DNA of 64,000 nucleotides from Pezizomycotina sp. ARF18 (taxonomy: Eukaryota > Ascomycota). Numbering within the stretch: the stretch's first letter is position 1; each line of letters starts with the position of its first letter. Of this stretch, positions 2,004 through 63,483 are shown piece by piece. The notes below the pieces were generated by a model that worked only from the letters and a program-made list of their open reading frames with translations, ran no database searches and was not told the DNA's origin. The DNA is taken from NCBI GenBank assembly GCA_002224055.1, contig AZLU01000113.1, positions 1 through 64,000 of the forward strand, given 5' to 3'. A program made the translations under genes and the position numbers.

Positions 2004-4345
2004 CTACGTGCTCGGTGTTGTAAAACCATCCATGGCCCTATGAGCCTCCTTGCTAAAGCGCAGCGATGCAATTGATATGTATCGCACTTGTTCATTTGTT
2101 ACTATAAAGTACTTCAACGACGTAAAGCAGAACAAATTATAGGCTGAACTTCGTGAAGCGAGGCTGAAAGGATACTGCCTTGCCCGTACTTCAAATAAAC
2201 TTTGGTAAAAAAACCTGTTTATATTTCCTGAGTAAATCTTGAAATATTTAGTTTCATTTGCCTTTCCGGTGGCTGCCAAGTAGGCTGCCTTAATAAACCC
2301 TTTTACGCCAGCGCCTGGACCGTATGCACCTTCAATCGTGGCTGCGTTGTTGTTCTGATCCTTCCAAATACCATCCTCCGGATCTATTAACCATATATCC
2401 TTGTATTCTGATTGTGGTCTATCATTTCCATCCATGTTTGGCATTACAAACCTTGAATCAACCATCAGGTTGATCTCTTGGCTATTGTACCACGACTGGG
2501 AATCCTGATTTCCGCTGCCCATAATGCCGACTTGATTATCCACGATCATCAACTTGACTACTCCATCCGAAATAAATGTTAGCAGTCCAGAATCCGTGCA
2601 TGTAACATTTTTGGGTGGCAGACCATGACTTTCCGACATCTTGCTGTTGCATGAAGTGGCTTCCGCATGTCGCGCCCGACGTACCAGTACATCTTAAGGT
2701 ACTGCTTAAACTCAGGCGCAAGGCCTTTGTACATTTTCTCAATAACTTTATCGTTTGACCTCCGGTGAGCATCTCTCCCTGATGTGCCAGATCGTTTAGC
2801 ATCAGCATAACAAATAGAGATCTACCAAGTACATACTGCGTCATTATATCCAGAAGTCACGAAGATGGTTACCTCCACCCCTTCTCGCCGCGTTCAGCAC
2901 TTCTTCCACGATCGGTTCGCATTGAAATCCGAGTCTGAATGAAAAGGCTTCGGCCTGCATACTTGACAGCTGCCAGCCAGGCTTCGTTTGAGGAACGAAG
3001 CTTTTTGCTGGTACTTGTCAAAGCGTGAACCGGAATAGCCCTGTAATGCCGGTTGACGAGAGCTATTGGGATTCCTGTGATAGAGTTTTCATACAAGGCG
3101 TAAACATCCGATCCGCGATATCTTCCTCAGTTGCGTTCCCGACCGTTTCGGACTATATGTTGAATCTTTTACAGTGAATCTGGATTAGCACCACGGGTCG
3201 TATAAAGAAACGATTCTAAGGCAGCGATGGTTCACGAACTCAAGCAGCGCGTAATGGCTGCCATCCTAGACTCATTTCCTTTTGTTCCCACCTGCAGGAG
3301 ATCTCCGAGATATATGCAGCCAATTGCCAGACGAAGGCCACTCGTCATTCGAAGTCTCCAACGTCAGCCCCGATTGATCAAGGCCGTATCCTCCTCCGAG
3401 GATCCCAACTTTCCAAAAACACTTGTCGGATACCTTCCACTATAGGGCCTTGAAAATCACACGACATCTCAAGGTTGGCATTGTCCTGAAGCAATTTTAG
3501 TATTCTTTAGTTAATGCCGTGTCAATAATACTTCACCTTACCTGTATATTGTTACTGCCTACGACGGCAAGCTTCCTGTCAATGACAAGGAATTTGCTAT
3601 GCAGGGTTCCGAGAGGGAGATTGTGATAGTTAACGACTTGAAGATGAATTCTGGCAACTCCGACGGCTCCGGCAAAGCCAACTTTCTCAGAAGAAACCTT
3701 TGGATCCGGATTGTACATGTGTATGAAGGAGCTTGATGTTCAAGTCAACAAAGTTGCATCGGAGGAAAGCTCTCCAATTTCGTAAACCTTCATCTTACCA
3801 GCTTTGGCTCAGCATCAGAACATGATTCTGACTGTGACTTTTTTACCATAACCCTGCGCAACGGTTCGCCTAGATAGCTCGCGAAGCGCTTCTCCTAAAA
3901 TTTCACAGACTCGGAATTTTTCCATGCGTTGGTTGCCAGCAAAACTTCGTGACGCGCGGCAACGATAAGCTGCAGCAATTGTAGTATAATATCAGGCATG
4001 CTGAAGATCACATCAGTTACTGCCTGAGATCTCTGAAGTCAGACTAGCGGTAAAGTGGAATGGATACTCACTTGGACAGAATAGTAAGGGTACCGTTCCG
4101 GTAGTTCCGGTATACTTCTTTGCGACAACATTACCCTCAGGGTTTCGCCGCAATGCTTCTTCAACGTGCGCGAAAACTATGTTTTGTTAATTTAGCTGAA
4201 AGGCGAACGTACTCGCCAAAAGCGAGAGTCTATGTAATCGAACTTCAGGAAAAGTTCAGAGGGCTGAGTTCCCCCGAAACTACCGAATTCCGCGGCCAAG
4301 CCGCCATCGTGATGGGCGGATCATTATGTACAGCAGATTAAAAAG
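2004..4345 (-). CDS. Phospholipase D family protein (two HKD motifs), multi-exon
   Basis: PLD-superfamily enzymes hydrolyse phosphodiester bonds of lipids or nucleic acids using two HxKxxxxD motifs. HKD motif 1 is near 3,555-3,610 (HSKFLVIDRKLAVVGSNN). HKD motif 2 is near 2,510-2,560 (KLMIVDNQVGIMGSGNQ). Its His is supplied across a 66-nt intron at 2,558-2,623, and joining the flanks reads SHVKLMIVD. Upstream pieces in order are FGSFGGTQPSELFLK (about 4,270), TGTTGTVPLLFCP (about 4,095), LLATNAWKNSESV (about 3,930) and LGEALRELSRR (about 3,880). Between the HKDs lie GPIVEGIRQVFLESW (about 3,430) and NEAWLAAVKYAG (about 2,960). An intron with GTAAGG, a CTAAA branch and CAG follows HKD1. Several one- or two-base frame changes are needed, for example around 2,880 and 2,655. 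The 3' end is approximate and the first exon may lie above 4,345. The lipid-type PLD fold is clear; the substrate is not. Confidence 0.75.
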
Positions 4346-5291
4346 ATACTACTGTAAGGTGCTTTGCCAAGTAGCCAAGAACTCGCCGTTTCGAAGACTG
4401 TGAAATTTGGATGATCTCCCTGTTTTTTTTGGTAAATTCGGTATTTAAATCAAAGTCCCATCGGCCGGGCTAAGCTGAAAGAGAAGAGGGGATTGTTTCC
4501 AGCTCGCGTAATCATGACATCAAAAGTCCGTACCAATGACTTTCTTCCACGTGATAGCTGCGTCTAAAATCAATTGCTGGTATTGTGTTTTCAAGAAGAA
4601 AGCAGTGTGTTGTATTCAAGAGTCTCCTTGTGCTATTGTAAGATGGAGAGACACGCTGGGACGATAAATAAAACCTTCCATTTTATGAAACTCGTGACAA
4701 TTCAACCCGTTCGATATATCTGGATCCTAACGCCTGAGCCGGTTCTTTAAATATCATTTTCGAGCCTTCTCCTCAGAAACAAGGAAGTGATAGTACGTAC
4801 TTGTGTATCCTAGAGTCCGTAGCCATGCGTTTCTGATGAACAAACATTGCTTTTTGCCCGTTTCCTCCTTCGCTACCCGCAAGTTTGGATAGAATGATCA
4901 AAAGAGTAACGGCTTCACTTTTAAATTATTGGAGCGATACATGCTACATACTCAACACTATTTCCAAAATCTCCCTCTCTACACACCGTTACCCAGGCTC
5001 AGAAGGATCTATATCTCTCGCAAGAGCTGGAGGAGACAACTCATCAGATATCAGTAGCTCCTCTAGCATATCCTCGTTTCCGCTTGAAGATAAGGCATAT
5101 TATAATTTGATAACCATCGTCGTTACTTGCCGAGAATAGCAAAGTATAAACGATTCATCGTTGTTCCAATCACAGATACAGATGATCCGTCACTTGCGCG
5201 GCAATCGGTCAACACAATTTTAACACCTCTGTCGTAATATCTAGATTACAGCTCGTTCAGATGATATGAATAATCGGTATATGTAATAATA
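4346..5291. other. Intergenic, nothing recognised
   Basis: This separates the 5' side of the PLD gene from the 3' end of the RGS gene. The small open frames here have no domain and no coherent gene structure. The PLD promoter and possibly its first exon must lie at the left of this stretch. Confidence 0.4.
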
Positions 5292-6570: not shown

Positions 6571-6934
6571 ACCATTCAAACCAAGAACTATGGCGCAATA
6601 TCTTGATTGCGAAATGTTTACTTCAACGACCTGCGAATAGAGGGCGCTTGTAGTTTATATAACGTTTTTTTTCCGCTTATGGGATCGTACTTTTAACTCA
6701 CCGGATCGGTCTCGCCTCCACTTTTTTGTTGTCAATGCCACAAAAGATACTTTTTTTTGGCCTCACCACCTGGGTTCCTAGCACTCGAGGTTGATATCAA
6801 ACCCCGCTTGACCTATTTGAGTAGTAGAAAGAGAATTTGGATCCTTTAACCGGTTCGCAAAGCTAATCTCGCCGCTTCGAACAAGTAAATATTATTTTTA
6901 TTTAATCAGCAGGCTGATACCAAATCCAAAGATA
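6571..6934. other. Intergenic, likely RGS promoter region
   Basis: Non-coding stretch upstream of the RGS start. It contains short T-runs and no convincing TATA box or domain-coding frame. It ends at the TA target site of the inverted-repeat element. Confidence 0.4.
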
Positions 6935-7612: not shown

Positions 7613-7614
7613 TA

Positions 7615-8340: not shown

Positions 8341-8344
8341 ATGT

Positions 8345-9588: not shown

Positions 9589-11210
9589 TTATAGATTATT
9601 AGAGTATAGAAGAACACGGAGATGCAGCAAATGCTTCAATTTGTTTCCTGAAGTTAAGCATGGTATTCCTAGACTAACCCTAGCTTCCAAATACAAGATC
9701 TCGAGCGTGCATTTGTTCCAATCTCCACCCTGTAACACGAACTCCAGCGTCTTTAGCCAGTCACCTAACAGACAAGTGCCAAATTCGTCCGCACTACAAC
9801 CCGCGAGCTTCATCACGCGTCCGTTGACAACCACCCTTACTCTCTCGTTCGCCTTTTGCTCTGTGTTGTTCTCGCCTTGACATGAAAGTTTCTCAACGTA
9901 CATCCTTGCCCCGAAAGGCGTCACCCTGCTTCCAGTGTACCCTCCGCCTTCTCGGCGCAGACTCGCCTATCAGCCGGTAGAGATTCCTTTGCCTCCGGAA
10001 GAGTCCCATGGCGGCGTAAATGCTGATCATGTCAGTCTCGTGCGTAAAGTCTAGGTAGACCTCCTTGTCCAACGGGAAAGTCTCGTTGTTGCCGTCCAAC
10101 GTCATGTTGATTCCACCGTAATGCGTGTTGTCATGCAGAATGGGCTTCTTGGTCATCCTCGCGACGAGCTCCTGGACCCAGGGAGCTCCCCTGGTAACAC
10201 CCAAGGGTTCGACGTCCCAAATCCATATTGCAAATACAGTGTCTGCAAATACTCGTAGTTCTTCCAGTCCTCAAGCGAGAATAGTGCGCAAACCGGCGAC
10301 ATCTCGATTTTTCCTCCAGCGGAGGTGGATACAGTGGAATACGGGCACAATTCCATGAGGTTGATGTATCCGAATCGGTGAAGACGAATGGTTTCAACGC
10401 CTCATTCAGCCGCTCCGTCAGTTGAGGAGCGAACGTGTTCCTGAACTTATTCATCGCGGTTGTGACAACATCAGAGTTTGGTGACTTCGAAAAAGCTGGA
10501 CACATGTAGTTCAAAGAGGATCCGAGATGTTGGGCGCCTCCAGCATCAGAAGTATAGGAGTCTCCCTGCCTTCAAGCCCTTCAAAAAGTTCTCCGCAGAG
10601 CGGTAAACGCGACCAGTATCAACGATATCCGATGCTCGAACAAAGGTGTCGAGGGGTTCCAGCAGGCCCGGTAAGAATCCGCGAAAAGCTTTCAGACTCT
10701 TGCAATTCGTACTCTCGAGTGCCGTCAAGGACTCTGCCCAAGATGATAGTGATAATTCTTCAGGAAAGAATACTCTCCGAGGGAGGATTCAGGTCGGTCC
10801 TTCAATGCTTCCTGCAGGCGTGCAACCAGGGATTTGAATGAATCCACCTTGGGAGTAAGTGGGAACCGCGATCCATGCCGAGAGAGAACCTGAACAAACG
10901 AAACGTGACATTGAGAAGGAGGCGCAGGTAGACCGGCAGCCTGCTGATAGTAAGGGGAGAGGTTCGCCCAAAAATGCGCAATATCGTCGTCGTTGCTGCA
11001 TTCGGAGTCCCTGGTTGGCGCCGGGTAATCCGAAGCCTTGACTGTCTTCTGCGTGCAAACGTTATAAGGCAGCGCGTGTGCCGAAGCTACCAGCTCTGGA
11101 ATTTCCATAACAGTTAGCAAATGCATGGTATTCGCCGTTTCATGAAATGGAACATACAGAATTATTAACGCGACGACTTCATTGTTTCTAGAATCCAGCA
11201 CGGCTCCCAC
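9589..11210 (-). CDS. Histidine acid phosphatase (phytase-like)
   Basis: These secreted enzymes release phosphate from phytate or other phosphomonoesters through a phosphohistidine intermediate. The catalytic signature RHGSRFP is at 10,860-10,880, preceded by CHVSFVQVLS. Further along are DDIAHFWANLSPYY, a VRASD..GRVYRSAENFLKGL stretch near 10,590, LMLEAPNISDPL near 10,520 and LCPYSTVSTS near 10,340. CALFSLEDWKNYEYLQ is near 10,270 and WVQELVARMTKKPILHDNTH near 10,150. The C-terminal motif DFTHETDM is near 10,030-10,050, and the end piece has NGRVMKLAGCS and GGDWNKC. The order matches the fungal phytase/HAP family from end to end. The proton-donor motif reads His-Glu instead of the His-Asp of classic PhyA. 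Several frame shifts are needed (for example near 10,727 and 10,350). The start is unclear: ATG 11,126 is plausible, but the open frame runs further up with a hydrophobic stretch that could be an anchor. Identity is firm; the start and integrity are not. Confidence 0.85.
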
Positions 11211-11856: not shown

Positions 11857-13157
11857 TCAGAACCAGAATTCAACAAACATATTCACATCGATGTCAGTTC
11901 GTAACTTCATCATAGGCCTTGTCAGCGGCCGCAATAATATCCGGCAGAGGATCGGGAGGTTCCGAATCCGTCGCTTAGTATCCGTCGAGCCTTCGGCTTT
12001 ATGTTCTCCCAAAATTACGTAAGGGCTTATCTCCGTACCATCGTGGTGGGAGCTCTTCGTGGTACTGCGCTTGACTCCAAAAGCACGCACGATCAGTGGC
12101 TTTACACAAGCAATGCAAGTACACATGATGGCCACGTTAATTTCTACCGAGGACCAGACAATAACCCCGGTCGCATCCCCTATGTGCGGAAAAAAATCGT
12201 TAGTATTTCTTTCCTTCTTTCGTTCCTTTCGGAATTCGACCATCTTCCACTTCAGCACCATGACTCTTACATTGCGCATCGTCCAGGAGGTACTAGTTTT
12301 GACAAGTGGTTAAGACGCAGACAACTCGCCAGGACTGCTATAAACCGACACTAAAAACCAGAGCCAAACCCATCTTCTGACGGGTGGTCAGTCGGGAATC
12401 TTGCAGAGTCTGCGAATCGGTAGCGCGTATAATATCACGTCCGTCAAGATGGACGATACTCCGTTGAAGATGTAAAGTACCGAAAAGTTGATGCAATATC
12501 CCCTTGCGTATCTCGAGTCTCACGCGTATGCAATCGGCCGGCATTGGAATATCGGCGCTAAAGTTGTCGCTATATCGATGCATATAATGATAAACAAGCA
12601 GGACGTAGATAGTTATTCGTAGCGCGGCATCACCCGAAGCATGAGTAGGAGGATTTGAAACCTTGACGGCGGTTAAAGCGTTGTGTTCACGATTTGCATG
12701 ACGTAGAAGATGGCCCGGCCTCTGTCTATGTCCCGAGGGTGAAAGGTCCTTCAAATGGTTACCCAGCCATACCGGGTTTCTATTGAAAATGATCTTATTA
12801 GGAAACCGTTGACGCTATTAATGACTTAAACAATCATTTATCCGTTTGTCGAGACTCACGAGCGATTACTAAGACCGGCGAGAGCAAGGAGAGCATCTAC
12901 CATATTGTAAAATCAAGTCAGTGACTGAACGCAAAGGAAAAGCGATGACTCGGAGATAAGCAGATGATGATCACGAAGATACATACTATTGCGACGATGG
13001 CCGACCAATCGTCCTTGCCAACACCGGCGTCTGTCATCCTCAGTTTCATCCATAGCCTCACAACAACCAGTGCGAATGAGATCGCGACAACTACGGATGC
13101 ACTGGTATATATGACGCGAACCTTACTTGGCCCGTCTGGTCGTATGGTTTCTATCAT
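11857..13157 (-). CDS. PTH11-like rhodopsin-domain membrane protein, copy 1
   Basis: The family (fungal rhodopsin/SAT4 domain) are seven-helix plasma-membrane proteins, some acting as G-protein-coupled receptors for surface cues. The likely start is ATG 13,157 (MIETIRPDG). Helix 1 (SASVVVAISFALVVVRLW) is followed by KLRMTDAGVGKDDWSAIVAIV, the family's conserved GxDDW-type segment, then a GTATGT intron start. The central part at about 12,400-12,570 reads LAPIFQCRPIAYA, DSRYARGYCINFSVLY and NGVSSILTDVILYALPI. It continues into TTRQKMGLALVFSVGL near 12,360. The last segment has VIVWSSVEINVAIMCTCIAC near 12,130. One in-frame TGA at 12,520-12,522 replaces a Trp expected after CRPIAYA, and a frame change follows near 12,410. 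The copy may therefore be a pseudogene, although its overall architecture is complete. Confidence 0.75.
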
Positions 13158-15896: not shown

Positions 15897-17587
15897 ATGG
15901 CGGCCTCAACTGGTAATGCGACATACACGTCGGCGGTCAAGATGGAGCGGTCGCGGCCGGGTACAATCCTTCAGTGCCTGTGGATCGATGGCATCAGAGA
16001 ATGGAATTGGCTGCCATTATCGTCTGCAACGGTCTTGCCTGTAAGTGTCCAATGCCCGCATAGAAGCACCCGCGCAGGAGAAAGTCAAGCAGTATACTAA
16101 CATCTGAATCTACGTCACCCTGATAGTGATTGTCCTTCTAGTAAGAATCTATATAAGGAGTTTCAAGATCAAGCGACGTTTTCGATCTGACGATTATTGG
16201 ATATTTGCTGCACTGGTAAATAAAAACCGACACGGAAACTCCCATAGCTTTCTTCCCGCCTAACCTGTCTTGATAATAGTTCTTTCTCATTTTCCCACAT
16301 TTCGCTGCTCAACTTGGGCCAACCACTTCGTAGCGGATTGCACTTGATCAATGTTACAGATGATGATGAAGAAGTACTGGGTGGTAAGGTCATGTCGCAC
16401 TATTTGAGTTTTCTACCTCTCCGCCGTTGTATATTTGCGACAATCGCTAATTCAAAGCTTTTCCTCGGGGCTTGATAGTTTAGCTGGGGCTACTGCGGCT
16501 ACTACATCGTCTGCTCTCTCATCAAAGTATCGCAGTGTTGCTGTCTTCTCCAAATACGTAAGTCTTTCACCGAGAGATATAAAAACGCTTACTAGGAAAG
16601 AACGGCCGCTGATCAGTTGATCATTCTGTCGAGATAGTACCCGATCATCTCAAAACCTTTAAACGTTTAATTTACTTGCTTTGCTTATTTATCCTCAGTC
16701 TGGGCCTCACTGAAGCCTTGATTTGGTTGTTCCAATGCGTTCCCTTCCTCAGTAACTTTCAGTGGAACGTCACGCAAGTCAAGTGCCTCAATATTGATCC
16801 GATCCGATACCGTACGTATTTCTACCCCTTCACCTCTGCGCATCCTTCCCATTCCGTTTACTATTTCGGTTATGAAGAGTGGGAAGGAGACTAAAATTTC
16901 GCTGCTTCTAGTATGGGTTGGTCTCAGCGTGCCTATTGACGTCCTTATCATATGGATCCCCTTCGGCATCATCACCCGAACGCAACTCCGACGGCACGAA
17001 AAGCGAGTTCTTACCATGGTCTTCGCCGCCAACCTCCTCGGAACCGTCGCCTGCGCACTCGGCGCCTATGGTATCTGGTCAAATCGCCACTCCCAGGACC
17101 AGGATTTCACATTCGCCGAGTCCACCTTTGTCATAACAAACGACATCGAGATCCTCATGTACACGCTCGGTGCTTCTTTCCCGTGCTCTCGCCCTACTTC
17201 ATCTCGTACTACGCGCCTTCAACGACAAGGAACCACCAAACACCTACCACGGCATCGATGATGCCTTCGTGGAGGAGGAAAGTCACAAATATCACACAGC
17301 GGAGTAGGGCCGGGACAACGACGATCGGACACCGAAGGACCAGAAGCCGAAGATCACAAGACCACGACATTGAGATGCTCAGCACGACAGGAGTGCCGCT
17401 GGAAATCACTGTGGACTGGCAGGTCAGTGTGACGGCAAAGACGAACGAGACTTCTCAGAGCAGCAGCCCGAGGAAGATCATGACTGTCGAACAAAGATCA
17501 CTGGAGGATCATGAGAGTCATCGAGTAGAATCGATGTGTTCCGAGGCGGAATTGAGCGAGAAGCCGGCTTCGATGGGCAGATTTTAG
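15897..17587 (+). CDS. PTH11-like rhodopsin-domain membrane protein, copy 2
   Basis: The start ATG at 15,897 opens MAASTGNATYTSAV. The first intron begins GTAAGT near 16,040 with a TATACTAAC branch and ends TAG near 16,126. Exon 2 gives IVLLVRIYIRSFKIKRRFRS followed by DDYWIFAAL, the family signature. A later exon reads GLDSLAGATAATTSSALSSK near 16,480. Then come LTEALIWLFQCVPFLSNFQW near 16,700 and, after an intron (GTACGT..CTAG, about 16,812-16,909), VPIDVLIIWIPFGII and RRHEKRVLTMVFAANLLGTV. The last membrane part is ITNDIEILMYTLGASFP. A single missing C at 17,180-17,182 breaks the frame, and the alternative continues VLSPYFISYYA. The C-terminal tail is hydrophilic and Ser/Thr-rich, ending at the stop at 17,587. 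This is the best preserved of the four copies and is probably functional. Confidence 0.85.
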
Positions 17588-24256: not shown

Positions 24257-25573
24257 ATGGCGAAACAGGGAACCACGCAGATCGTATGTTCAATTCGCTA
24301 CCAGGAGGAATGGAAGGCTACCGTAACAAAGATGGAATGAGAAACCTCTTAACTAACGTGTCGCGGTTCAGGGCTTCGACTGGAGCATGATCGCTTTTAC
24401 ATTCATACTCCTTTGCATTCGACTATATACACGTATCTCCCGCTCAGCATCGAATATACCGTCTCTTTCTGACTGGTTCGTTATAGCCGCATGGCTTTCT
24501 TCACCCTAATATGCGCTTGCGACACCGTACTGTTCGTCGAAGGCTTTTTCTCCAACGACGTTAGCCCGTTAGTACCAATGTCTCCCAGAAACTTCGGGTC
24601 CTGGCATTGAAGATCTATTATGTGGAAAACGTCTGTTACTTGAACTGCGTGTACGCCGTAAAGGCATCGGTATTATGCCTGTTCCACGAGTTTTTCCCGC
24701 GTATATGATCAGAACACGGTGGTGCCTGTGGTTCGTCACTGGTTTTGTAATTCTGGATGGCTGTTACAATTTCTTCTGTCGGCGTTTTGGTGCCTTCCCA
24801 TTTCTCAGAACTGGTATATCTCTATTCTCATCCCCTCATGTTAAAACATGAAGAACCTGATGGGTATAAGACAGATCCTGATCAATTCGCTACAGGTCCT
24901 TGGATGAGAAAAAATATTGCACAGCCAACGATTCGACTTTCGTTGTGGTCGTTGCCCTCGCCCACATTTTGCGTCAGATTTAATGCGTGAGTTCTCTATC
25001 TTTCGATTTGTAAATCTTTAAAGGATCGATCATTTCCACGGTCAACTAACAATTGTTTCATAAATTAGTCTACGTCCTCCCCATGTTTGTTGTCGCCCGT
25101 TTATCCCTCCCCAGGAGGCAAAAGTGGGGTCTGGGCTTCACGTTCTCCATGGGATTCCTGTGCATATTCTTTGCTTCCGCCTTCCTCGCCTCCAGCTACA
25201 TGTCCGAGGACGCCAACGTGATCTGGCCCTTCGCCACCCTGGAACAGACTTGGGCTATTGTGGTGCGTGCTGCCCGCCTTGCGGCCTGGTGCGGCGACGC
25301 AGCCAACCTCGCCGCACAAGGGCAGCCTCACGAGCGGAAGCCGTTTCAAGGCAAAGGAAACCTCGCCGCGAGTTGGCAGCCGACAAGAACGATGTAGAGG
25401 TCGGCGTCCTTGTCGTCGAAATGAGGGATAATACACAGAGACACGAAGGTTTCAGTCACACATGTGGGACCGGTCAAAGTTCGATGATAAGCTATCAGTA
25501 TCATCATGAGACCTTCTTTTTATTTGATTCCGGTCGTTTTATATCTCTTCATGTTTTGTGTTTCATTGGTTAG
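24257..25573 (+). CDS. PTH11-like rhodopsin-domain membrane protein, copy 3
   Basis: The start at ATG 24,257 (MAKQGTTQIVCSIRYQEEW) is supported by an intron at 24,323-24,371 with GTAACA, a TTAACTAAC branch and TTCAG. Joining its sides gives GFDWSMIAFTFILLCIRLYT and then SDWFVIAAWL, the family's first helices. Next are KIYYVENVCYLNCVYAVKAS and LCLFHEFFPR near 24,640. RTRWCLWFVTGFVILDGC follows near 24,715. A second intron (GTGAGT near 24,988, CAACTAAC branch, TTAG near 25,069) joins HFASDLM to LYVLPMFVVARLSLPRRQKW. The last part is GLGFTFSMGFLCIFFASAF and WPFATLEQTWAIVV. The tail frame is uncertain, so the 3' end is approximate. Two or three frame shifts are needed. As in the other copies, a receptor role is inferred from the family only. 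Confidence 0.78.
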
Positions 25574-25707: not shown

Positions 25708-25756
<49 letters not shown>

Positions 25757-28507: not shown

Positions 28508-30244
28508 GATCGGATACACCGACTTTAACGATCTATTACGAAATTTGAACCAACAAAACATTTTGCCCGACGGAACGACCCACGATAACCGGGTTGCAAA
28601 TGCCGCACAGCGCATATCAGATCACAGTGTATCGATGACCTCAACGTTAACAGCCTTCGGCAACAGACCCGCATCAGAGGTTTTGGATCTGTATATTTCC
28701 TCCCTCGCATTCCCCCGCAGCCCGTCGCACTGCGCCAGGTGCCTCCACGGCTGCCTCCTCTCACTGTGCCACCCAACCTATGGCCTGGATAACATCCCCA
28801 TCATCCGCTCCTCGAACCCCCAATTTCTCCGCTCGACGATGACCTTCCTGACAATCCCTCGCTCCGATTCCGAGCTGGAAACCCTCCAGCGCTCCTTTGA
28901 CACTGTCTTCTGTTCGTGCGACATGTCGGACCCCTCCGTGCTGGAAATGCACTGCATCGCATCCCAACTGATACGCACGCAACTGGGAAGACAAAACTAC
29001 TTCGAAAACCTCGTGCGCGCGATGATGGAACTGATTAACAATGCCCTTCAGCACGCAATAACCGCATCAGCATGCGATTTCACCTCACGCTCGATACTGA
29101 ACTCCCCCTCATGGCCGGAATCTCCGCGCGACGTCACCCCTTTTGGTCCCGAATCCATCACTTCCTTCAGCGATATGATCGCCATAGCCCCGTCGCCGTC
29201 CGCCCTCTCCATCCTCGATGTCGCGTTCAGCATGTGCGGAGAATCCCTCATACAACCGTTCCTAAGCTCCTCCACAATGTCGGGCAAGCTCGTCGACATC
29301 GGGTCCATGCCTATGGCCTCCTGGCCGCGCACGACCCAGCCACCGGGCTCTGTGGCTTCCGACATACCGCAGCCGATCTAGCAGAACAGGTCCGAACCAC
29401 AGCCCGGCTATGCAAGCGACTTCTCTCCCTATGCAAACCGCAAGACCTCGTTCGCCTCTACAACCAATCCTTCGCGCAGTCCTCGTCGGCGAACGACCTC
29501 CTGACGTTCTGCGAGAGCATGTGCGCGTGGCTGCCGGACCTGAAACTACAAACACCCACGTCAGCGCCGTACATGCGCGCCATTACAGCTTCCGTGACGT
29601 ACGCGACTGACGTGTTCGCAGACCTCGGCGCGAACTTGTACTACCACCTCCAGCAGATGGAGGAGCTAACCTCCTCCCCCAGGTCGAGAAAGAGCAAAAT
29701 AGTGTACCACCGGTACGTCAAGCTCTTCCCTCGAAGGATCGGACCGGGAGGCCGCGTACGCTTCCGCCTACGAAACGCTAGCAAAGCTGAGGCTGCGCGA
29801 TCGGTGCTGGAACCCGGGCTGCCAGAGAAAGCCTGACTTGCTTGCAGTTGATGAAGGCGCGAGGAGGGAAGCGTGGGGTTTCCCGTCTGCGACGGCTGTG
29901 GGATAGTCTGCTATTGCTCCGTTGAATGTCAAACTGCAGCTTGGTGGCACGCGAAATGCCCGCACCAGGAGCTCTGCAGGTGCTTAAACGAAGTAGTGGA
30001 GAAGACAGGAGTGGATGGCGCAATCGGGAGGCGGGGAAGTAGCGTTAGCATCGCCAGCAGTAGCGGGGGTAGCAGCCTCGGTGCCGGCGTCCGCCGGCGG
30101 GGAAGCACGAAGCCCGAGAAGGAAGCCTTCCGCGAGGAACTCAGGAAAGGCGGAGATGACATCGTGAAGTCTGTCGAGGTTGTCGCTGGGTTCCTGAAGA
30201 GGTTCGATAGGACTGAAGCTTCGATGGCGGAGGCCACGAGCTGA
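28508..30244 (+). CDS. MYND-type zinc-finger protein
   Basis: The C-terminal part has a MYND finger at about 29,795-29,975: RCWNPGC, then VCDGCGIVCYCSVECQ, AAWWHAKCPHQELC, supplying the usual Cys/Cys-His ligands. MYND fingers bind proline-rich partner peptides. Upstream, a long coding stretch reads DFNDLLRNLNQQN, SQLIRTQLGRQNYFENL, TARLCKRLLSLC, QSSSANDLLTFCESM and YHLQQMEELTSSPRSRKSK. Together these suggest a helical N-terminal body of about 400 residues. The tail after the finger is Gly/Ser-rich, then KEAFREELRKGGDDIVKSVE, stop at 30,244. Three frame changes are seen, two in CCC runs (29,728-29,730 and 29,882-29,884). A 5' exon may lie upstream, because the sequence before 28,508 ends in a plausible acceptor (TTTTCAG). 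Function beyond the finger is unknown. Confidence 0.68.
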
Positions 30245-37678: not shown

Positions 37679-37843
37679 CTTACTCCTGTTTCCAAGATCG
37701 TGATCATGCCGTGCGTAATTCTGCTCTTGGGCTGGCCGCTGTTCGGTTGGATTGTTCGCAAACTTACTCCTGTCCAAGATCGTGATCATGCCAGTGCGTA
37801 ATTCTGCTCTTGGCTGGCCGCTGTTCGTTGGATTGTTCGCAAA
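37679..37843. repeat. Tandem duplication, two copies of about 82 bp
   Basis: Copy 1 (37,679-37,762, 84 bp) and copy 2 (37,763-37,843, 81 bp) start CTTACTCCTG and end GTTCGCAAA. They align along their whole length without a single substitution. All differences are indels: TTT versus T, an extra A after CATGCC, GGG versus GG, and GG versus G. Confidence 0.9.
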
Positions 37844-45326: not shown

Positions 45327-45534
45327 GGTGGCGGGGTGCTGTGTCGAGAGGGGAACGGAGGAGGGGAAATGGGTGGAGATTGTGCAGAACGAGCGGATGC
45401 GTTCTGGAATTAAACCGGCGCAGAGCGGTGCTTTTAAGGAAGGATCGGTATCAGAGAGCTAAAGAGCCCCCTTGCAGAAAAAAAATACGATGTCGAAATG
45501 TACCTGCAGTAACCGGCATCCGGCGACGGGCTGA

Positions 45535-45542
45535 CTTTTATA
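45535..45542 (-). promoter_or_regulatory. Possible TATA box of the phosphoesterase gene
   Basis: TATAAAAG on the minus strand lies about 210 bp upstream of ATG 45,326. The distance is acceptable for a fungal promoter, but one match is weak evidence. Confidence 0.35.
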
Positions 45543-50400: not shown

Positions 50401-52385
50401 AAGCGATCCAATACATGTCGCACCATCTCCGCAAGGTCGGTCGGAAGTTATCCACGGCCTGCCTCATCTGCGACTCCCGATTCTTGCCAGCGACTTCTTT
50501 AAGTACCAGCTTAACCCACAGGAAAGTCTTTCCCATCAGCTTCCGCACAAGCTCGTCCTTAAACGCCGGGTTGCGCTTCCCTAAATTCCTCAGATTGCTG
50601 TACCGCTTTAATTCATAGTTGATGTACCTCTCCACGTCCTTCGCGAGCGCGTTCGTGGAGAGCTCGATCATGGGTGTCTTAAAGTCCAACACTCGGTAAA
50701 CTTCATCCGTAACGTCCGGCCGGCCGACGAGCAGGAACTGCAGGCGGGGTTTCGTACCCTTCGGAATATCAGCGTAGAAATCCTTCATGGCTTCCAGCAG
50801 GATCCAACTCCATTATAACCCTCGCGAAACGCTTCGTCCAGGCCGTCGATGACGACGTACGCGTTATCCTTCAGGTCCGTCTTGCTCTTGAAAAAGTCGA
50901 CGAACAGCGTCTTCCACATATGCACTGTGCCCTCAGTCATGAGCGTCCCACCGTCGCTCGCTCCGCCCTGCTGATTCTCGATGGCGTTGAGGAGGAAGCG
51001 GCCGTAGACGAAGTCGTTCGCAGCGAGCTGGTACGCCACCGTTCGCATAATGTCCGAAAACGATTGCCGCGCGCTGTCGCCTTCGCGGCAGAAGAAGTAC
51101 GCAACCCCGTGCGGCGGGTATCCTGGACATCCTGCGGCATCTGATCCTTCAACCACTTTATGATCTTCGCCGATATATGCGACTTTCCGCACCCCGCCGT
51201 TCCCGAAACGAACAGAACCGCGCTCCTAGCCGTCGTCGCTCCTTTCCCCATAAACCAGTTCTCGAACATCGGTTCCGTGAGTATCCACTCGCAAGTCCCG
51301 GAACGATTTCATTCACGCTGTTCTCGTAGTCCGCTTCCATGCTCAATAACGGCTGCAGTTCCTCCCGTAGCTTCTTCATCGTCTGGTCGTATACTTCCAC
51401 TCCGGTATCTCTCGTGCTCTTCGGCTTCGCCTGCGTCGATATAGCCATGCGTACTTCCGCGTCTTTATTGGATACCATCTCCATCAGCGTCCTAACGTCG
51501 CTCCCCATCTTCGCTATACCGTCCGCGTTGTCGTACGATATCCCGAGGTTGAGCGCGCCGACCATGCTGTCTTCCTCTCCTGAAAGGCGATCGACCTCCT
51601 TCACAAGATCGCTAATCTCCTCATCCTCGCGGTGAAGACGTGTTTAATAAACTTTATCGCCCGTCCTTCTTTTACATCCTAACACTCATCCCGACGATGA
51701 CAAGGAACAGGCTCAACTTCCGCACCATAATCACTTTCAACTCTGGCGCTATAGCCCGCCTTGAATGGACCGTCAACCTCGTTGTAAACGCCTTCAGATT
51801 CTCAAAAAGCTCAATCATCGAATCGTAGGAGGAAGAAATATTATCCGCCGCGTTGATCAGTATGTTCACCGCTCCAAATACCAGACTACTCGGCGGGAAA
51901 ACGGCCTCCAGCCCACCGCTAATCAACTCCGAAAATATCTCAACCGTCGTCATCAGCGGCGACAGTACATTCCTCAACTTCTCCTCTTTTCGCGGTACTT
52001 CTCGAATCGACCCTGGGAATCCTCCAGCGACGCCAGCAGTGTAGATGCGGTGAGGGTGCTTCCGCCACCAGTGGCCTCCTAGGCGGTGAGGAAGAAGCCG
52101 ACGGCGGCGACTTGGAGCGGTGGAAGAAGGAACGCCGGGGTTTCGAGGATGATGAGGACGGTGATGGGGAGCGGTCGCGAGCGCGGAAGGTGATGGTGTC
52201 GGCGAGGGTGATGCCCGTTGTGCGGGTGTAGCGGTCGCAGGCTTCGCTCCATATCTGCGTGAACTGCTGGTCTTCGGGTTGCTTCTCTGTGACTGTGACG
52301 GCGGCGCCGTTGGTCGGTGGTGGTGATGCTGGGCTTGTAGGGTCGGCCTTGACCTCCGCAGTCCTTGGGGAGTTAGGGAGGCCAT
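47416..52385 (-). CDS. NLR protein: Goodbye-NACHT-TPR with Cys-rich C-terminus
   Basis: STAND NTPases of this layout are fungal counterparts of NLR immune receptors: the TPR part senses, the NACHT part oligomerises, and the N-terminal domain signals. ATG 52,385 is followed by FTQIWSEACDRYTRTTG, then NVLSPLMTTVEIFSELIS and NILINAADNISSSYDSMIEL, the Goodbye domain. After a linker the NACHT domain has Walker A GTAGCGKSH (51,180-51,203) and Walker B YVVIDGLDEA (50,830-50,859). The winged-helix part follows with VERYINYELKRY, RKLMGKTFLWVKLVL and LNELLAWVTGTRRPLTLGEL. TPR units include IYHGLGKTLSELKRYREAIE near 49,150, ALRCWLGQVYYQQKDGEERA near 48,410 and GYARLGYALLMAGDEKNARA near 47,920, with a charged coiled coil near 48,850. 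The C-terminus at about 47,560-47,700 is Cys-rich (CTYC, CHICTSGC, CWKC), a likely zinc site, and ends EWIARLKKDWDI. Many frame changes break it. The first is one missing base in the G4 run (plus strand) at 52,367-52,370. Confidence 0.85.
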
Positions 52386-55076: not shown

Positions 55077-55119
<43 letters not shown>

Positions 55120-55446: not shown

Positions 55447-55454
55447 TATAAAAG
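55447..55454 (+). promoter_or_regulatory. TATA-like word before NLR 2
   Basis: TATAAAAG stands about 45 bp before the patatin glycine-rich motif. No ATG lies between the two. Either translation starts upstream and this match is chance, or the start codon was lost to a base error. Confidence 0.3.
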
Positions 55455-55479
55455 GTGTTTGGTGTCTGCTAGGACTTAA

Positions 55480-58400
55480 TCTAATCGTGCCCAGACGGGG
55501 AGGTGTCCGCGGGCTTTCTTCGCTCCTAATTTGAAGGATATCCTTTGCGCAATAAATCCGGATGATCCGCCAAAACCTTGTGAGGTTTTTGATCTCATCG
55601 GTGGGACCAGCACTGGGGGTGCGTTTGTCTTCCGCTGGTTCATCAAGTTCCTGCTCTTGCCAACCCCACCCTCTTCTTTCCCCTTATTTCTCTTTTTCCT
55701 CTCGTGATATATATAACAAGGGTTTAGCCACGCTTCCAGCTAACATGAACTCAGGATAATTGCAATTATGCTTGGAGTCCTTCGCATGGATGTCGACAAG
55801 TGTATACAAGCATATAAAGAACTTTCTAAGGACGTATTTAACCCAACCGTCGCCGAGTGGCGAAAAATTACGAGGGCATACAAAAAGTACAAGGCTGTCG
55901 GGAAATTCAACTATAAAAAGCTTGAAGCTTCAATCAAGGACACGGTTAAGAAGGAGCTGGAGAGCCTTACCGCGGAGCAGAAATGCTCCGAGTCCTTCTC
56001 GAGCGGACCAATGCAAGGCGTACGAAGGCCGCACTACTTGACTATATCGTCCCAAATTTCTGCACCTGTAAAACCCGAGGAGAAGGCGCTAAGCTGATGT
56101 AAACCACGTATTTTGCTATTAGATTTGTGTGTTCCATGAGCACGAATATTACAAGGCCGGTGCTGATTCGAAATTATCGAAATCCCCGTGCTCGATTAGA
56201 CGTGGAATGTACGATATGGGAGGCCGCGCGCGCCACCTCAGCTGCGCCAGGATTCTTTGATCCGATCACGATTAACGGCGAGACTTTCAGCGACGGGGCA
56301 ACCGGAAGTAACAATCCGATCTTCCACCTTTGGCGAGAAGCACACGAAATATGCCGGACCTTGACGACCGACTACAGAGTCTCGTGAGCCTGGGCACGGG
56401 GGAGAAGGGATATGAGTCCTTTGAGGGAACATCATCGATCTTGCTGAGAAGGGTTGCGAAGATCTGCACAGAGAACGGGGCAGACTCACGATAAGTTTTA
56501 TCACTCTCATCTAGACCTCTTCAAAACGGGAAAGCGTTTCGTTTCAACGCTCCGCTGGGAATCAGATAGCTCGATGACTACGAATACGAATCTTCCGTTT
56601 CATTGTGGAGCCACTCGCGACTACATGGAATCCGGGACGATCCCGACGAGGTGAATAACTTCGTGATGCTCTCAATCAAGATGTATCTATTGGTAATACA
56701 TGACATCTGAGCCTCAAACGGCTTTCTCAATATTTTCCCCCAAGAGAAGAGACCATATTTCAAGAAAGTAAAGAGCGTGGCTAGAGGATCCTCTAGAGTG
56801 AAGTAAATTCATGTCTAACGCTGCGGGTATAATAGCTACATTGAGCGATATAGCAGTCTTAAATATCTTCTTTTCGAGGATTTTGAAGCAGTTCAAATCG
56901 AAAAAGTCCCAGAAAATTGTGAGGTACCTGCGATTGGGTGCTCGGCTCGATGAGTTTCGGCGATGGGCCCAAGGTGACACGACATCCTATGGCTGACAGG
57001 AGAGTCTGGCAGTGGTAAAACCGTTCTACCGCATTCTTTAGCGAAAATCGTTCCATCGGTGTTAAATCGATCGGTGCCCTCCAAGGAGATCATTAGCGCC
57101 TTCTACTTTTTCAACTACAAACTCTGCTCATACCCTCACTATCAACTTGCGTCATCAGAGCGATGATTTACCAGTTGGCGACGCAAAAAGTCAAATCTAT
57201 CCTGGACGCGCTCGATCAGGAATATCGAACCTATCGCGACAAGTTCGTCATGTCAACTCATCTCTATGGCGGATCCTTGAGTCGGGATAAAAAAGCTGCA
57301 TACCAGCCGTTCTCGACGATTCTTCTGTCTCGATGGGCTAGATTATGCGAGGAGAATGTAACCATGAAAGTTATTCAGAGATGAGAAAATTATTCAGTTG
57401 GAATGGAACATAAAAGCCATTTTTCGCTTCACAAGCCTTTTCGTTACATGAGGGGCATTTTTGCAGATAATGTCACGAATAGACATGGGGGGATGGTCCG
57501 GAATACTAACGATATAAAGGTCTTTATTACGAAAAGACTGGAGAGCATATCTGAAATTCCGAAACCTGCCTTCTAATGTTATGGCCGATGCGAAATGCTT
57601 TCTGGCCGATAAAAACCAAGGATCCTTCCTATGGACATCCCTCATTCTAGATGAGCTTTCTGAGAGCGGATGTTTCTTACGATGACTTGATGAGAAAGCA
57701 ACTTCACGATATCCAAACCTTGGAACGCGACTCTATACAGTTGGCTTTCAGATGTGCCGAAGGAACAATGGGATTTTGCTTCCAGGGTAATCACTTGCCT
57801 CATCACCACATCCAAGCCTCTTTCACTACTGGAGCTTAAATGAGGCTTTGGCAGCGCAAGTGTTGCAATGACGGCGAGCGATGGTACGAGTTCTTATATT
57901 CGGATTTAGAAAGTGAATTAAGGAATGCCCTTGGACCTATGCTGAGGATCCAGAAAGATTCTGTCAAGCTCGTTCATAAGTCGTTTCAAGACTTCTTAAT
58001 AGGGATCGATACCACAGAGAGCCTGATCTTGTAGAACGAAGAAGCCCAATTTCGGGACGAAGGCAGTGCTTCATCTCATTGTAGTCATTGCAATACTTAA
58101 GTATATCGGCTGGTTAGATCTTGGAAGACCTCCGGCACATCAATCAGTTTAAGAAACATTCGTAGGAAACAAGCCCATTTGCTCGTTACGCTTCCTGCTC
58201 TTGGAGGACTCACTTGGAACTTAGTGACAAGGCCACTAATCGGAAACTTCTATCTCACCTCGCGTTGGTTATAACGAGAACACCGTCAAGAAGGCGATGC
58301 AACTCTATGTCGCAGGTTACAGCATCAGACTAGGCGTCAGCGTCGATTACGTGACCGTTGACCCCTTTGTCATGGCTTGTATTTCTGGACACACATTTCT

Positions 58401-61400
58401 GGTGGATTTCTTCTTGAAACGTCTCCCAATTTGCTCCTGAAGGATTACTCAGAGTCTGCAGGCCCCTTGCAATCCGCTGTAATGCAACAAAAAACGGAGG
58501 TTGTCAAAAGGCTTCTAGGACATAAACCGTCGTCGCAGATAAATACGAAAACAAAATTAGGCTTTACGCCTTTGCATTTTTGCCGCATTCATGAAACCAG
58601 GACCTCTTAGTCGTGTTGTTAGAAAATGGAGCGCTGCCAAACGTCGGCGGCGGGTACTTCGCCGGGCTGTCCGCTCATGATTACGCCTCTCCACATAGCG
58701 GTATGTAGCGGGCGGAAGGATAACGTCAGAGAGCTGATAAAAGCAATACGCCCAAGCGATTATCCAATCCTAGGAGCCAAAGATTACTCACATGTGACCC
58801 CATTACACTTGTCTTTAGCATTTGGCCATGACGAGATTTCAGAACTATTGATGAACTCACCGGGCTGCGATGGCAAACGTTCTACCTACTTCAATACTAC
58901 GCCATTACATTTGGCAGCTCCACGGTCTGGTCTCCACATCATAGAAATGCTTCTCAAAGCCGGGTAGACGTTGATGCCGTGATTTCATCGGTCGATCAGC
59001 CTTGCATTACGCGATCGCTAACAAAAGAAACGATGTTGCAAATTTGCTTCTCGACCACAATGCTTCTACTACTAACCCGGATGATGACGGTATATACGCG
59101 ATGGAGCTAGCCGCAGCCGCTTCGGATCTTGACCTCGTGCGAAGAGTTCGTGAAGTGGATGCAATTCGCCTCTTTCACTGCGCCTCATGCATTACACGAA
59201 GCTTCAATCACAGGGAATATAGAAATCGTCGAGGATCTCATTTCATCTGGGTACACAAGCGACTTAAACGCACCAAGTAAAAAATAACTTCACAGCCCTG
59301 CAATGCGCCATATATCACGGCCACAACGGTGTCCGGGATATCTTACTCAGTGCAGGCGCTGACTTGAATGATCAAGGGGAACACGCAATCGTTCACGTTT
59401 ATGAGCAGATTTGGGGAACTTAAGCAAGTCCAGGAAGTAGTTGCACTTGGGGCGAATCCAAATATGTTATCCACAGATTCTAAGAGAACCCCCTTGCATC
59501 ACGCTGCCAGGGGAGGCAAGCTGGAGACCTTCCAATACCTGATCTCTCTTGGGTGCAGTTTCGAGGCGGAGGACTATCATGATAACACCTGTCTCCATCT
59601 TTCCGCGCGCAGCGGCAATCTGGACCTCTTTATTTTCATCTTAAAACTCTGTCCCCCGATCGACACGTGTCGCAAAGAACTCTCATGACAGAACCATACT
59701 GCACAAAGCCGTAAAAAGCGGAAACTGCCAACTGGTTGCACATATCCTTCGTCTGCCAAGTTCCGAGAGAATTGGGATAGATTGCCTGGATTGTACTGGG
59801 CACGACGCTATTTCGCTGGCCATTCGATATGGCTTTTGTGAAATAGTGGAGTTGTTGTGCGAGTATCAAATTGCAGCAGGGAAATTTTCGCTATTGATAA
59901 GACGCTATTTGAAAAAACGTCTTACCTCCTCGAGTTTGCGACGATGTGTGACAATCCTCCGATCTTAGCCGCTCTTTCGAGAGCGGTTTACGGAGACGAA
60001 GAATCGGACGTAGTTAGACGTCGAGATCCCACAAATTAGGACAACGGGCTCACGATGTAGCGCGAAGGTCATTTTTAAGAATGGTTGGACGCCCTTGCAC
60101 TATGCATCAGATCGTGGAAGCACTTCCGTTGTAAAGTTACTGCTATCCATGGACATCCACCGCATCTGGCGACTGATGAGGGTAACTCCGCTGCATGTTG
60201 CAGCCTCCCAAGGAAGGATTGAGGCTGTTAAGGTTCTATTGGAGCACTCTGAGTTAACCCTGAGGCGTCGATAAGGCGGGTTTAATGCGCTTCACGCCGT
60301 GATTTATCTATATAGATAACTGGAACCCGATTCTAACTATCGATCCGTTGGTTGGCTACACGGTGATTTGGATCCACGGGCTAGATGGGAGAGTCACCAG
60401 TACAAAGGACCTACTTATTGACCCCTGTGCATGAATTTTTTCACCGTCTAGAAGATTTCAACATACGCCTAAACGACCATGTTCTGGGCTCATGAAGATG
60501 GCTTAAGGCCATTGGTTTCCACCGAGGAAGCGCAGCTGAAACCTGATTCCGATGTAAACGAACCACAGGCGTCGGAATCGGACGATTCGGACCCGGACTT
60601 AGAGGGGGAATCGGAGTTAGATCTAGGCCTTGGTGCATCCTCCAGCCAAGGGATGAGATATTTCCCAAAAGAAGTGAGACCTAGATAGATTAAACTTGCT
60701 CTATCGTCGATTCAAGTTATCCCAGTCCCAGATGGCCGAGATGATAGGGTCCGCTATCACGATAGCTGGGAAACGTATACTGGCCGCCAAAGCGCGGCCT
60801 AGTATACCACTGGCGAAGAACCTGGGAATTTTCCAAGCTAATATGGGGCATGCCGTCCAACGGCGGTAATGGCGAGGACAATCATTTCCAAGGCCTCATG
60901 AGTTTTCTGCTTTTCTGGTCTTCTCGATATCTGTGTAGCGATAGCGCAGGATGCCGAATGTTCGCGTCGATTGGCTCGTGGAGTATACTGGTATGAAGGA
61001 CACGGAGTATACTAGTATGAAAGACATCGAAACCCTTGATTTGGAATTGTCGATACCTCCTAATTTGTGGGCCGGGTTAAACACTTTCGTCTCCCCAACA
61101 GTGGCTCAGCTACTGTTATCAGCTCCAGGCGGAATAGAATTGGCCTTGCAGAGCATTCAACGCCGTTGATTCCGGAACTTGAAACCATAGAGCGGCTAGC
61201 CGAGCGGTGTGACGTCAACTGCCAAACGGAGGCAGGATATACTGCACTGCATATGGCCTCTCGGAATGGGCACGTTGATATTATGAAAAACTCATGAAAC
61301 GCGGCGCGGACCCAACGATACGGGATAAGGCGGGAGACACACCAGTTAATCTTGCCTTAGAAGCCCGTATATCGTCGTGGAAATGTTACAAGCCTTTGCA

Positions 61401-63483
61401 GAACATGGCTTCGATTTCTCTCAAACAACCTCGACTACGAATCCCATCGAAATTATCGTCAACGCGGTAAAAAATCTCAAGAATTTCTCTCAGGGCGCGG
61501 AGATTTTTAATTACCTTCTCGCTCACGGCGTGGATATTACTAGTAGGCCCTAACGATAGCTAATCCTGACGGGACATCCGAGGTTGTGTATTTATACAGC
61601 TGGCGGCTCTGAGCGGCTTTGAAACCGTGCTACCTAGCTTATTGTCGATGGGTAAGGATATTACGGAGGCCCTTGGGTCTGCTTGCCTCCCATTATTCCA
61701 TTGCGCTGCGAGATCGAACAACATAGTTGTCTTTAGACAAGTGGTAGAACTACCTAAAGAAGCTGAATGATGGCAGTGGTCAAGCTGAGGGAAGCTGATC
61801 AGGCGGGAGCTGGATCGCAGATGCTTGAAAGATGGGAATCTTGTTCAGCATCATCACGACATCACTTCGCTAGAGATAATTCGCTTATTGTTGAAGCTCG
61901 GCATGGACCCTAACACTGTTGACGCCAGGGGTTACTCAGCATTGCATATAGCGGTTTTGAAGGGACGAACAGAAATAGCCAACATTCTCATGAATGAGGG
62001 GAAAGCGGATGTGGATATGTTGGCACATGGAAAACGCACGCCAATTAGTTTGGTGGACCTAGCTAGGTGGAATAAGGGATCTGCCCAATTTTACAGGATG
62101 TTTGTAACAGAGGAGGAAGAATTGATATTCCTGATGAGCGTGGGCGACACTGCTTCATACTGCAGCGAAACATGGCAAACCCGGGGCTTTGAAAGCCATA
62201 CTTGATCAGGCGAGTAGGCTGGTAAGCCATCCCTAATCAACCAAGCTGACATGAAATTTATGACCCCGCTACACTACGCGGTGAAGCGTGGGTCTTTACG
62301 GAAAAGCGAATACCTGTTGCGTGCTGGAGCGAAGCCGAGACTCCGACGGAGCGGCGGAACATTTGAGTCCCCGATCGATATTGCCATGGTAACCCGGAAT
62401 GCGGATCTCCTCCGTCTGCTGCTTCAGTATGATCGGCCACCGGAGAAATAGAACGATTTTCATGGCGGTGGATGAGGTGTTGTATTGTTGGAAGTTGCAG
62501 GCAAAGAGGGGTGGACGAGTATCTTTCGAAAATTGCTGCAGGAGCACGGCGAAGACAGACACGTGCGGGAGACTAGCTTTGAAGACAAGCCTCTTGTCGA
62601 AGCCTGCAGGCTCAAGCACCACAAATTTTCAAAATACTCTGCCAGAGCAGTCTCCCAACCAGGGTAAGGTGCGACACTAGCGGCTATACAGTGTTACACG
62701 AGGTCTGTCGGCGCGGGCTTGCCAATTTCTGAACACGCTCGTTCGCCATCGCGGCAAGGACTTGGGACTCGAGGATCGCGATGACCATGGATGTACAGCC
62801 TTGCACCACGCTATAACTCACGGCCATTGGTCGATTGCGTTCGAGCTCCTCCGCCTCGGATCCGATCCTCGGGCGCTGACGAACGATTGGTTGAGCCCGC
62901 TGCATCTAGCTCCGCCCCGGAAAAGACATTGGAACATGGTCTCCTACCTCATCACACCATACCGAAGCGGATCCAACTGTCCTTGACTATCCGGCATTTC
63001 GCCGATTCATTTCGTTTGCAAAACGGGCGACGAATTCTTGGCAGGGCTTTTCCCTGGAAGAAACGTCCGGAAGCGTTGGATAGTCCCGACCCGCTCGGCT
63101 ATACCCCATTACATCTAGCAGTCAAGTCTCAGAACAAATACCTCGTCGAGTACCTCCTCGAGAAGGGGCCAGTCCCTCTCAGCCCAGCTTTGTCTCATAC
63201 CGCCTCTGTGGACCGCTATTGAGGAAGTCTCTAACCTCGAGATTGTGAAACTCCTGATACGATACCGCGCAGACCCCCTAACGCCAAAGTGTAGGACGGG
63301 TCATAATTGCCTCCATCGGGCCGCCATGTCCCAGAATGCAGAAATGGTAGAGTACTTCTTGGGGATCCGGAAGATCTAGACCGGCAAGATGACTTTGGCC
63401 GCAGGCATATACCTTCTCAAGGGCTTTTCAACCATTACTACAAGGCATTCGCAGTCCGCGATGATCTAGTGGCTAGAGAATAG
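55480..63483 (+). CDS. NLR protein: patatin-NACHT-ankyrin (may be two genes)
   Basis: The N-terminal patatin-like lipid acyl hydrolase has the oxyanion motif GGVRG (55,499-55,513) and the serine motif GGTSTGG (55,600-55,620). An intron (GTGCGT, GCTAAC, TCAG, to about 55,754) leads to IAIMLGVLRMDVDKCIQAY. The segment IWEAARATSAAPGFFDPITI and catalytic Asp in DGATGSNNP (56,292-56,294) complete the Ser-Asp dyad. NACHT follows with Walker A WLTGESGSGKT (56,999-57,022), MIYQLATQKVKSILDALDQE and a KPLSLLEL piece near 57,820. From about 58,380 to 63,360 come at least 15-20 ankyrin units, with TPLHIAVCSGRKDN, HVTPLHLSLAFGHDE, RTPLHHAARGGK, YSALHIAVLKGRTE and YTPLHLAVKSQNKY as clear examples. The last coding piece is QGLFNHYYKAFAVRDDLVAR, stop 63,481-63,483. 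Dozens of frame changes interrupt it; one is a T-run at 55,530-55,532. The start codon is not resolved. A non-repeat stretch at 60,300-61,150 could mark a gene boundary. Confidence 0.82.
60980..61027 (+). repeat. 24-bp in-frame tandem repeat within NLR 2
   Basis: Copies at 60,980-61,003 and 61,004-61,027 encode EYTGMKDT and EYTSMKDI, an exact 8-codon unit with three nucleotide differences. It lies in the non-ankyrin interlude of the locus. Confidence 0.85.

What the first reader, a model, noticed from the sequence alone, without database searches (positions are those of the whole stretch)
2004..63483. Nearly every gene is broken by single-base indels, often in short homopolymer runs
Frames of at least ten unrelated families carry breaks. 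In seven that I could locate, changing one base in a run of the same base brings conserved residues back in register. They are RGS (A-run 6,231; C-run 5,947), PTH11 copy 2 (C-run 17,180), MYND (C-runs 29,728 and 29,882), NLR 1 (G-run 52,367), SnoaL-like (G-run 53,952) and patatin (T-run 55,530). Splice sites, start codons and catalytic motifs are otherwise kept, and stop-creating substitutions are rare. That fits uncorrected indel errors from long or pyro-type reads far better than simultaneous decay of many genes.
Basis: partly seen in the sequence, partly recalled or inferred. Interest (0 to 1): 0.75.

Follow-up and report, generated by a model that had tools for sequence, protein, structure and literature searches.

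The report
Indel-riddled draft assembly of fungal genes
The genes in this stretch of fungal DNA look broken most likely because the sequence carries many uncorrected single-letter insertion and deletion errors, so this is a data-quality problem and not a biological discovery.

Summary
The frame breaks are real features of the sequence as given, far more frequent than chance, and best read as uncorrected single-base indel errors of a noisy assembly. Two loci were traced with a frame-aware aligner: a fungal 3-phytase (5 breaks in 1.1 kb, 0 stops in 352 codons, 37% identity to solved phytases) and an ankyrin array (24 breaks in 4.0 kb, 0 stops in 1,160 codons). That is 29 in 5.1 kb, 5.7 per kb, against 0.29 per kb in intact control loci and 0 in in-frame 'aged' controls. 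An 82-bp tandem repeat whose copies differ by 4 indels and no substitution points the same way. The homopolymer claim fails: the eight listed runs are 3-4 bases long and traced breaks are not enriched at runs (6 of 29 near a run of 4 or more; 18% expected). Direction is balanced (16 short, 13 over) and no stop codon marks the breaks. That speaks against pyro-type or run-driven error, a mismatch-repair mutator and Euplotes-like decoding. 'Nearly every gene' was quantified in two loci only. Ordinary artefact.

The parts
9871..10985 (-). 3-phytase gene (histidine phosphatase, branch 2) in six frame pieces, 5 breaks
   Evidence: Pfam pieces in three frames; solved phytases matched in each of the three frames; frame-aware trace and controls
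58464..60247 (+). first part of an ankyrin array, 10 breaks
   Evidence: ankyrin hits in all three frames; trace; controls
61160..63361 (+). second part of the ankyrin array, 14 breaks
   Evidence: controls
50830..51299 (-). NACHT (NPHP3_N) of a Goodbye-NACHT-TPR protein, split between two frames with 29 nt between
51768..51995 (-). Goodbye domain, profile positions 44-119 of 120 in one frame; the first 43 positions not matched in that frame
56136..56330 (+). patatin-like phospholipase, profile positions 126-190 of 191; the earlier part lies upstream in other frames (by eye)
   Evidence: three-frame view
56972..57121 (+). NACHT (NPHP3_N) piece below the Pfam cut-off, between the patatin piece and the ankyrin array
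12088..12798 (-). PTH11-like (Fung_rhodopsin) copy, matched in one frame that holds six stops
16649..17201 (+). PTH11-like copy in two frames; the gap of about 100 nt may be an intron
25065..25232 (+). third PTH11-like copy, partial hit below the Pfam cut-off
29885..29977 (+). MYND finger, profile positions 13-39 of 39, below the Pfam cut-off
37679..37843 (.). 82-bp tandem duplication; copies differ by 4 indel events and no substitution
25710..25755 (.). T12 followed directly by A34, possible assembly or polishing artefact
55077..55119 (.). T18 followed directly by A25, possible assembly or polishing artefact

Best explanation
The window is a contig of a filamentous fungus (inferred from gene content) whose bases were never properly polished. 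Single-base insertions and deletions, about 6 to 8 per kb, were left by noisy reads, probably long reads at low or uneven coverage, and cut genuine, probably intact genes into frame pieces. Shown: the break density, its excess over controls, the absence of stops in the two traced loci, the balanced direction, the lack of homopolymer or stop-codon context, and an 82-bp tandem pair differing only by indels. Inferred: that reads are the source, that the same holds for the genes not traced, and that the platform is one with random-context indel errors (continuous long reads of the PacBio type fit best).
For: 29 breaks in 5,101 bp against 19 in 64,420 bp of intact loci and 0 in in-frame aged controls. 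Rates alike in three stretches: 4.5, 5.6 and 6.4 per kb. No stop in 352 + 1,160 codons. Both directions, no run enrichment, no stop at the break. The 82-bp tandem copies: 4 indels, 0 substitutions; two smaller duplications 1 indel and 0 substitutions each. PacBio read errors are described as randomly distributed (PMC5093776, passages). A fungal long-read assembly in which fewer than one-sixth of 305 conserved genes came out full length is in print (PMC7500977, passages).
Against: No reads, no second assembly and no close relative were available, so error was not shown directly. A 24-bp duplication and the 50-nt arms of an inverted repeat differ by 2 substitutions each and no indel. One PTH11-like copy has six stops in its matched frame. 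In the literature, residual long-read errors are most commonly homopolymer errors (PMC8812927, start of abstract in the listing; PMC7500977, passages), which is not what the breaks show. Direction differs between the two ankyrin parts: 3 short and 7 over, against 10 short and 4 over. A 305-aa ORF is much longer than the usual distance between breaks.
Confidence: 0.93

Rival explanations
1. Real decay: the locus is a graveyard of pseudogenes with true indels.
For: Six stops in the matched frame of one PTH11-like copy; an AT-rich stretch with RIP-like indices at 1-2000. Zero stops in the traced paths is not rare if substitutions are few per indel (P 0.13 at three per indel).
Against: No stop in 352 + 1,160 traced codons; at ten substitutions per indel (assumed ratio) 6.7 are expected, P 0.0013. 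The phytase keeps 27-52% identity in every one of six pieces. Copies of the 82-bp repeat differ by indels only.
Confidence: 0.04
2. A mismatch-repair-defective (mutator) strain with real recent indels.
For: It would give many indels and few substitutions: in mismatch-repair-defective yeast 87.7% of mutations were homopolymer indels and 6.4% substitutions (PMC3755907, passages).
Against: The same paper gives 2,011 deletions against 161 insertions at homopolymers and only two indels outside homopolymers or microsatellites. Here direction is balanced and runs are not favoured.
Confidence: 0.01
3. Homopolymer-driven read error (pyro-type chemistry, or nanopore with run-length errors).
For: Runs of A5-A7 and T6-T7 are mildly scarce against an order-3 model. 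Abutting A and T stretches resemble polishing artefacts described for a nanopore fungal assembly (PMC7500977, passages).
Against: 6 of 29 breaks near a run of 4 or more against 18.3% at random and 67% in a run-directed simulation with assumed weights. Runs up to A34 and T18 are present and T8 is in excess.
Confidence: 0.1
4. The genes are read with ribosomal frameshifting, as in Euplotes.
For: Conserved residues continue across the breaks.
Against: Euplotes shifts by +1 or +2 at a stop codon, mostly after AAA (PMC10235951, passages). Here the next stop in the old frame is a median 15 codons away, 14 for random off-frame starts, and 16 of 29 breaks are one base short. Copies of the 82-bp repeat differ by indels.
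Confidence: 0.005

Closest known systems
Gene-fragmenting indel errors of long-read-only assemblies (e.g. the fungus Drechmeria coniospora, PMC7500977, passages seen; Kastor, PMC12007338, start of abstract in listing)
   Same: Many conserved genes cut into frame pieces by single-base indels; A and T stretches without read support are also described there
   Different: The Drechmeria errors were mostly in homopolymers; the traced breaks here are not
Random indel error of PacBio-type continuous long reads (PMC5093776, passages seen)
   Same: Errors described as randomly distributed, as in the present context test
   Different: Platform not known here; the cited rate is for raw reads (about 10-15%), well above the 0.6% or so seen
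Mismatch-repair-defective yeast mutators (PMC3755907, passages seen)
   Same: Single-base indels far outnumber substitutions
   Different: There nearly all indels are in homopolymers and deletions dominate; here neither
Euplotes non-triplet decoding (PMC10235951, passages seen)
   Same: Many frame changes within genes
   Different: There a stop codon marks each site and shifts are +1 or +2; here no stop marks the site and both directions occur

Membership tests
Uncorrected long-read indel error | Break density far above that of intact genes | tested here: met
   29 in 5,101 bp against 19 in 64,420 bp; 0 in aged controls
Uncorrected long-read indel error | Indels greatly outnumber substitutions | tested here: inconclusive
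   82-bp, 20-bp and 16-bp duplications: 6 indel events, 0 substitutions; 24-bp duplication and 50-nt inverted arms: 0 indels, 4 substitutions
Uncorrected long-read indel error | Accurate reads contradict the breaks | not testable with these tools
   no reads held; no whole genome held
Homopolymer-driven read error (pyro-type, run-length nanopore) | Breaks concentrated at runs of 4 or more | tested here: not met
   6 of 29 against 18.3% at random, 67% in a run-directed simulation with assumed weights
Homopolymer-driven read error (pyro-type, run-length nanopore) | Long runs shortened or missing | tested here: inconclusive
   runs to A34 and T18 and an excess of T8, but A5-A7 and T6-T7 mildly scarce against an order-3 model
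Mismatch-repair mutator | Deletions at homopolymers dominate | tested here: not met
   16 short and 13 over, no run enrichment; yardstick PMC3755907
Euplotes-like frameshift decoding | Stop codon at the shift site, shift +1 or +2 | tested here: not met
   stop within one codon at 7% of breaks against 10% of random off-frame starts; 16 of 29 are one base short
Neutral gene decay | Substitution-made stops accompany the indels | tested here: inconclusive
   0 in the phytase and ankyrin paths, six in the matched frame of one PTH11-like copy; the expected number rests on an assumed ratio

The most novel reading that the evidence does not exclude
A fungus that really carries frame breaks throughout its genes and reads through them by shifting in both directions without any fixed site, a non-triplet decoding unlike that of Euplotes.
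Probability: 0.005. Interest if true: 0.97.

Novelty: not a real feature. Interest (0 to 1): 0.1.

Why it matters
It is a quality warning. Gene calls, pseudogene counts and receptor or NLR inventories taken from this contig would be wrong unless the sequence is polished first. The frame-aware trace with intact, spoilt and aged controls shows one way to measure such breaks without reads. It also corrects the proposed cause: the traced breaks do not follow homopolymers.

Tried and rejected
Codon-usage frame model, self-trained: too weak, about 11 of 64 kb assigned. First ankyrin profiles and multi-segment tracing: the model could re-enter anywhere and so hid breaks; the same flaw made useless. 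Both were replaced by a single collinear path (on). Relatives of one window ORF in viral contigs: none. PDB relatives of the patatin region: one frame of three tried, none. tRNA and Rfam scans: nothing. My first impression by eye that breaks in the ankyrin part mainly add a base and those in the - strand genes mainly lose one was dropped after the count (16 short, 13 over); the two ankyrin parts do differ (3 short and 7 over; 10 short and 4 over), and two losses close together can read as one gain. The 3 intron-like moves in the ankyrin parts are not counted as breaks; the 34 prokaryotic control loci, where no such introns are expected, showed 27. Checkpoint note 3 gives 15 breaks for the second ankyrin part; the right number is 14. 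RIP as a cause of the breaks was set aside: it makes substitutions (recalled), and RIP-like indices are seen in 3 of 32 segments of 2 kb only, none in the traced loci.

Full report
What was checked. The finding says that nearly every gene in the window is broken by single-base indels, often in homopolymer runs, and that this reflects uncorrected read errors. The window is eukaryotic and by content a filamentous fungus (Fung_rhodopsin/PTH11-like domains, Goodbye and NPHP3_N domains, 3-phytase). No whole genome is held for it, and no close relative was found (one ORF tried in viral contigs).

Frames. Pfam scans of frames with X at each stop covered most of the window on both strands. Left out were 1-2000 on both strands; on + 2001-7900, 10201-14000, 22001-24000 and 43601-53300; on - 22801-24000, 33991-34500 and 43481-44000; and a few joints of up to 100 bases. 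Several families appear in pieces over two or three frames. In NPHP3_N of the - strand protein the profile runs from position 49 to 51 across a frame change with 29 nt between, too little for an intron. In the phytase the last two Pfam pieces overlap in both DNA and profile while lying in different frames.

Phytase trace. A frame-aware, single-path aligner was run against letters of two solved phytases. It gives one collinear alignment over nearly the whole reference of 379 positions, 352 matched codons, 130 identical, no stop, and 5 breaks. The breaks are the same for penalties 7 to 13 bits; the loosest penalty (5) gives 6. Allowing only introns gives 130 bits with four stops, allowing nothing 79.5, and three shuffles 14-16.5. 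Each of the six pieces scores 34.5-88.5 bits in its frame, with 27-52% identity, and below zero at the three offsets tried.

Ankyrin trace. A profile built from half of the 79 prokaryotic loci finds 17 ankyrin stretches on the + strand in all three frames, and none on the reverse complement or the reversed sequence. The trace, with a profile from the same loci, gives 10 breaks in 58464-60247 and 14 in 61160-63361 and no stop in 1,160 codons, 167 of them in insert positions. Controls: of 39 held-out loci 5 with N were dropped; the other 34, 64,420 bp, gave 19 breaks, 27 intron-like moves and 2 stops. In 15 loci spoilt at 1 indel per 200 bp about 125 of 162 (deletions only) and 114 of 138 (both kinds) were called, and with deletions only 118 of 125 calls had the right direction. 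Twenty control spans, chosen as free of moves and then aged by in-frame codon replacement to about the window's bits per codon, gave 0 breaks at each of five levels. So the tracer does not readily invent breaks in degenerate repeats, and the true rate is probably somewhat above the 5.7 per kb observed.

Context. Of 29 breaks, 6 have a run of 4 or more within 6 nt (18.3% of random positions), 3 a run of 5 or more (6.1%), 19 a run of 3 or more (61.5%); the mean longest run is 3.00 against 2.87, P 0.24. Simulated random indels gave 30% against 32% background for runs of 4 or more, simulated run-directed indels 67% (weights assumed). The next stop in the old frame is a median 15 codons beyond the break, 14 for random off-frame starts. 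Breaks are 16 one base short, 12 one over and 1 two over.

Copies. The 82-bp tandem repeat at 37679-37843 has 4 indel events and no substitution over 83 columns; two smaller duplications (37882, 40529) have one indel each and no substitution. Against this, a 24-bp duplication (60980) and the 50-nt arms of an inverted repeat have 2 substitutions each and no indel.

Homopolymers and tracts. Runs are not capped: T8 occurs 11 times against 1.5-2.8 expected, and runs reach T18 and A34; A5-A7 and T6-T7 are mildly scarce against an order-3 model. Four places have abutting A and T runs of 7 or more; 24 simulated windows gave two such places in all. PMC7500977 (passages) describes A and T stretches introduced by polishing without read support in a fungal nanopore assembly. 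This is a likeness, not a test.

Alternatives. Decay: the absence of stops in the traced paths speaks against it if substitutions outnumber indels about ten to one (assumed; P(0) 0.0013), but not if the ratio is three (0.13), and one PTH11-like copy has six stops in its matched frame, some of which may reflect paired frame changes (by eye). Mutator: the spectrum of mismatch-repair-defective yeast is deletion-biased and nearly confined to repeats (PMC3755907, passages), which does not fit. Euplotes-like decoding needs a stop at each site (PMC10235951, passages), which does not fit. Pyro-type or run-driven nanopore error does not fit the context. PacBio-type error, described as randomly distributed (PMC5093776, passages), fits best, but the platform cannot be read from the sequence.

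Verdict. Pervasive frame breaks hold in the two loci where they could be measured and are likely for many others; the homopolymer part does not hold. The main interpretation, sequencing error, is supported by inference and not by reads; its suggested type is not supported. This is an artefact of low biological interest. No per-site list of breaks is given, on purpose.

Noticed in passing
1-2000: AT-rich stretch (30% GC) with RIP-like dinucleotide indices (TpA/ApT 1.39; substrate index 0.41).
   Followed up: partly
6932-7615: Inverted repeat with 50-nt arms, 96% complementary, 584 nt apart, in an AT-rich stretch: looks like a small terminal-inverted-repeat element.
   Followed up: partly
25710-25755, 27538-27555, 27799-27815, 55077-55119: Four places where runs of A and T of 7 or more abut (up to T12A34 and T18A25), against two in 24 simulated windows.
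   Followed up: partly
28464-29381: Longest stop-to-stop ORF of the window (305 aa), upstream of the MYND finger and much longer than the usual distance between breaks.
   Followed up: no
12088-12798: PTH11-like copy matched in one frame across six stops; two of them are TGA where, from recall of the family, a tryptophan would be expected.
   Followed up: partly
55450-63400 and 48000-52590: Two fungal NLR-like genes: a patatin-NACHT-ankyrin array on + and a Goodbye-NACHT-TPR on -.
   Followed up: partly
58464-60247 and 61160-63361: Direction of breaks differs between the two ankyrin parts (3 short and 7 over; 10 short and 4 over), perhaps local read or coverage effects.
   Followed up: no
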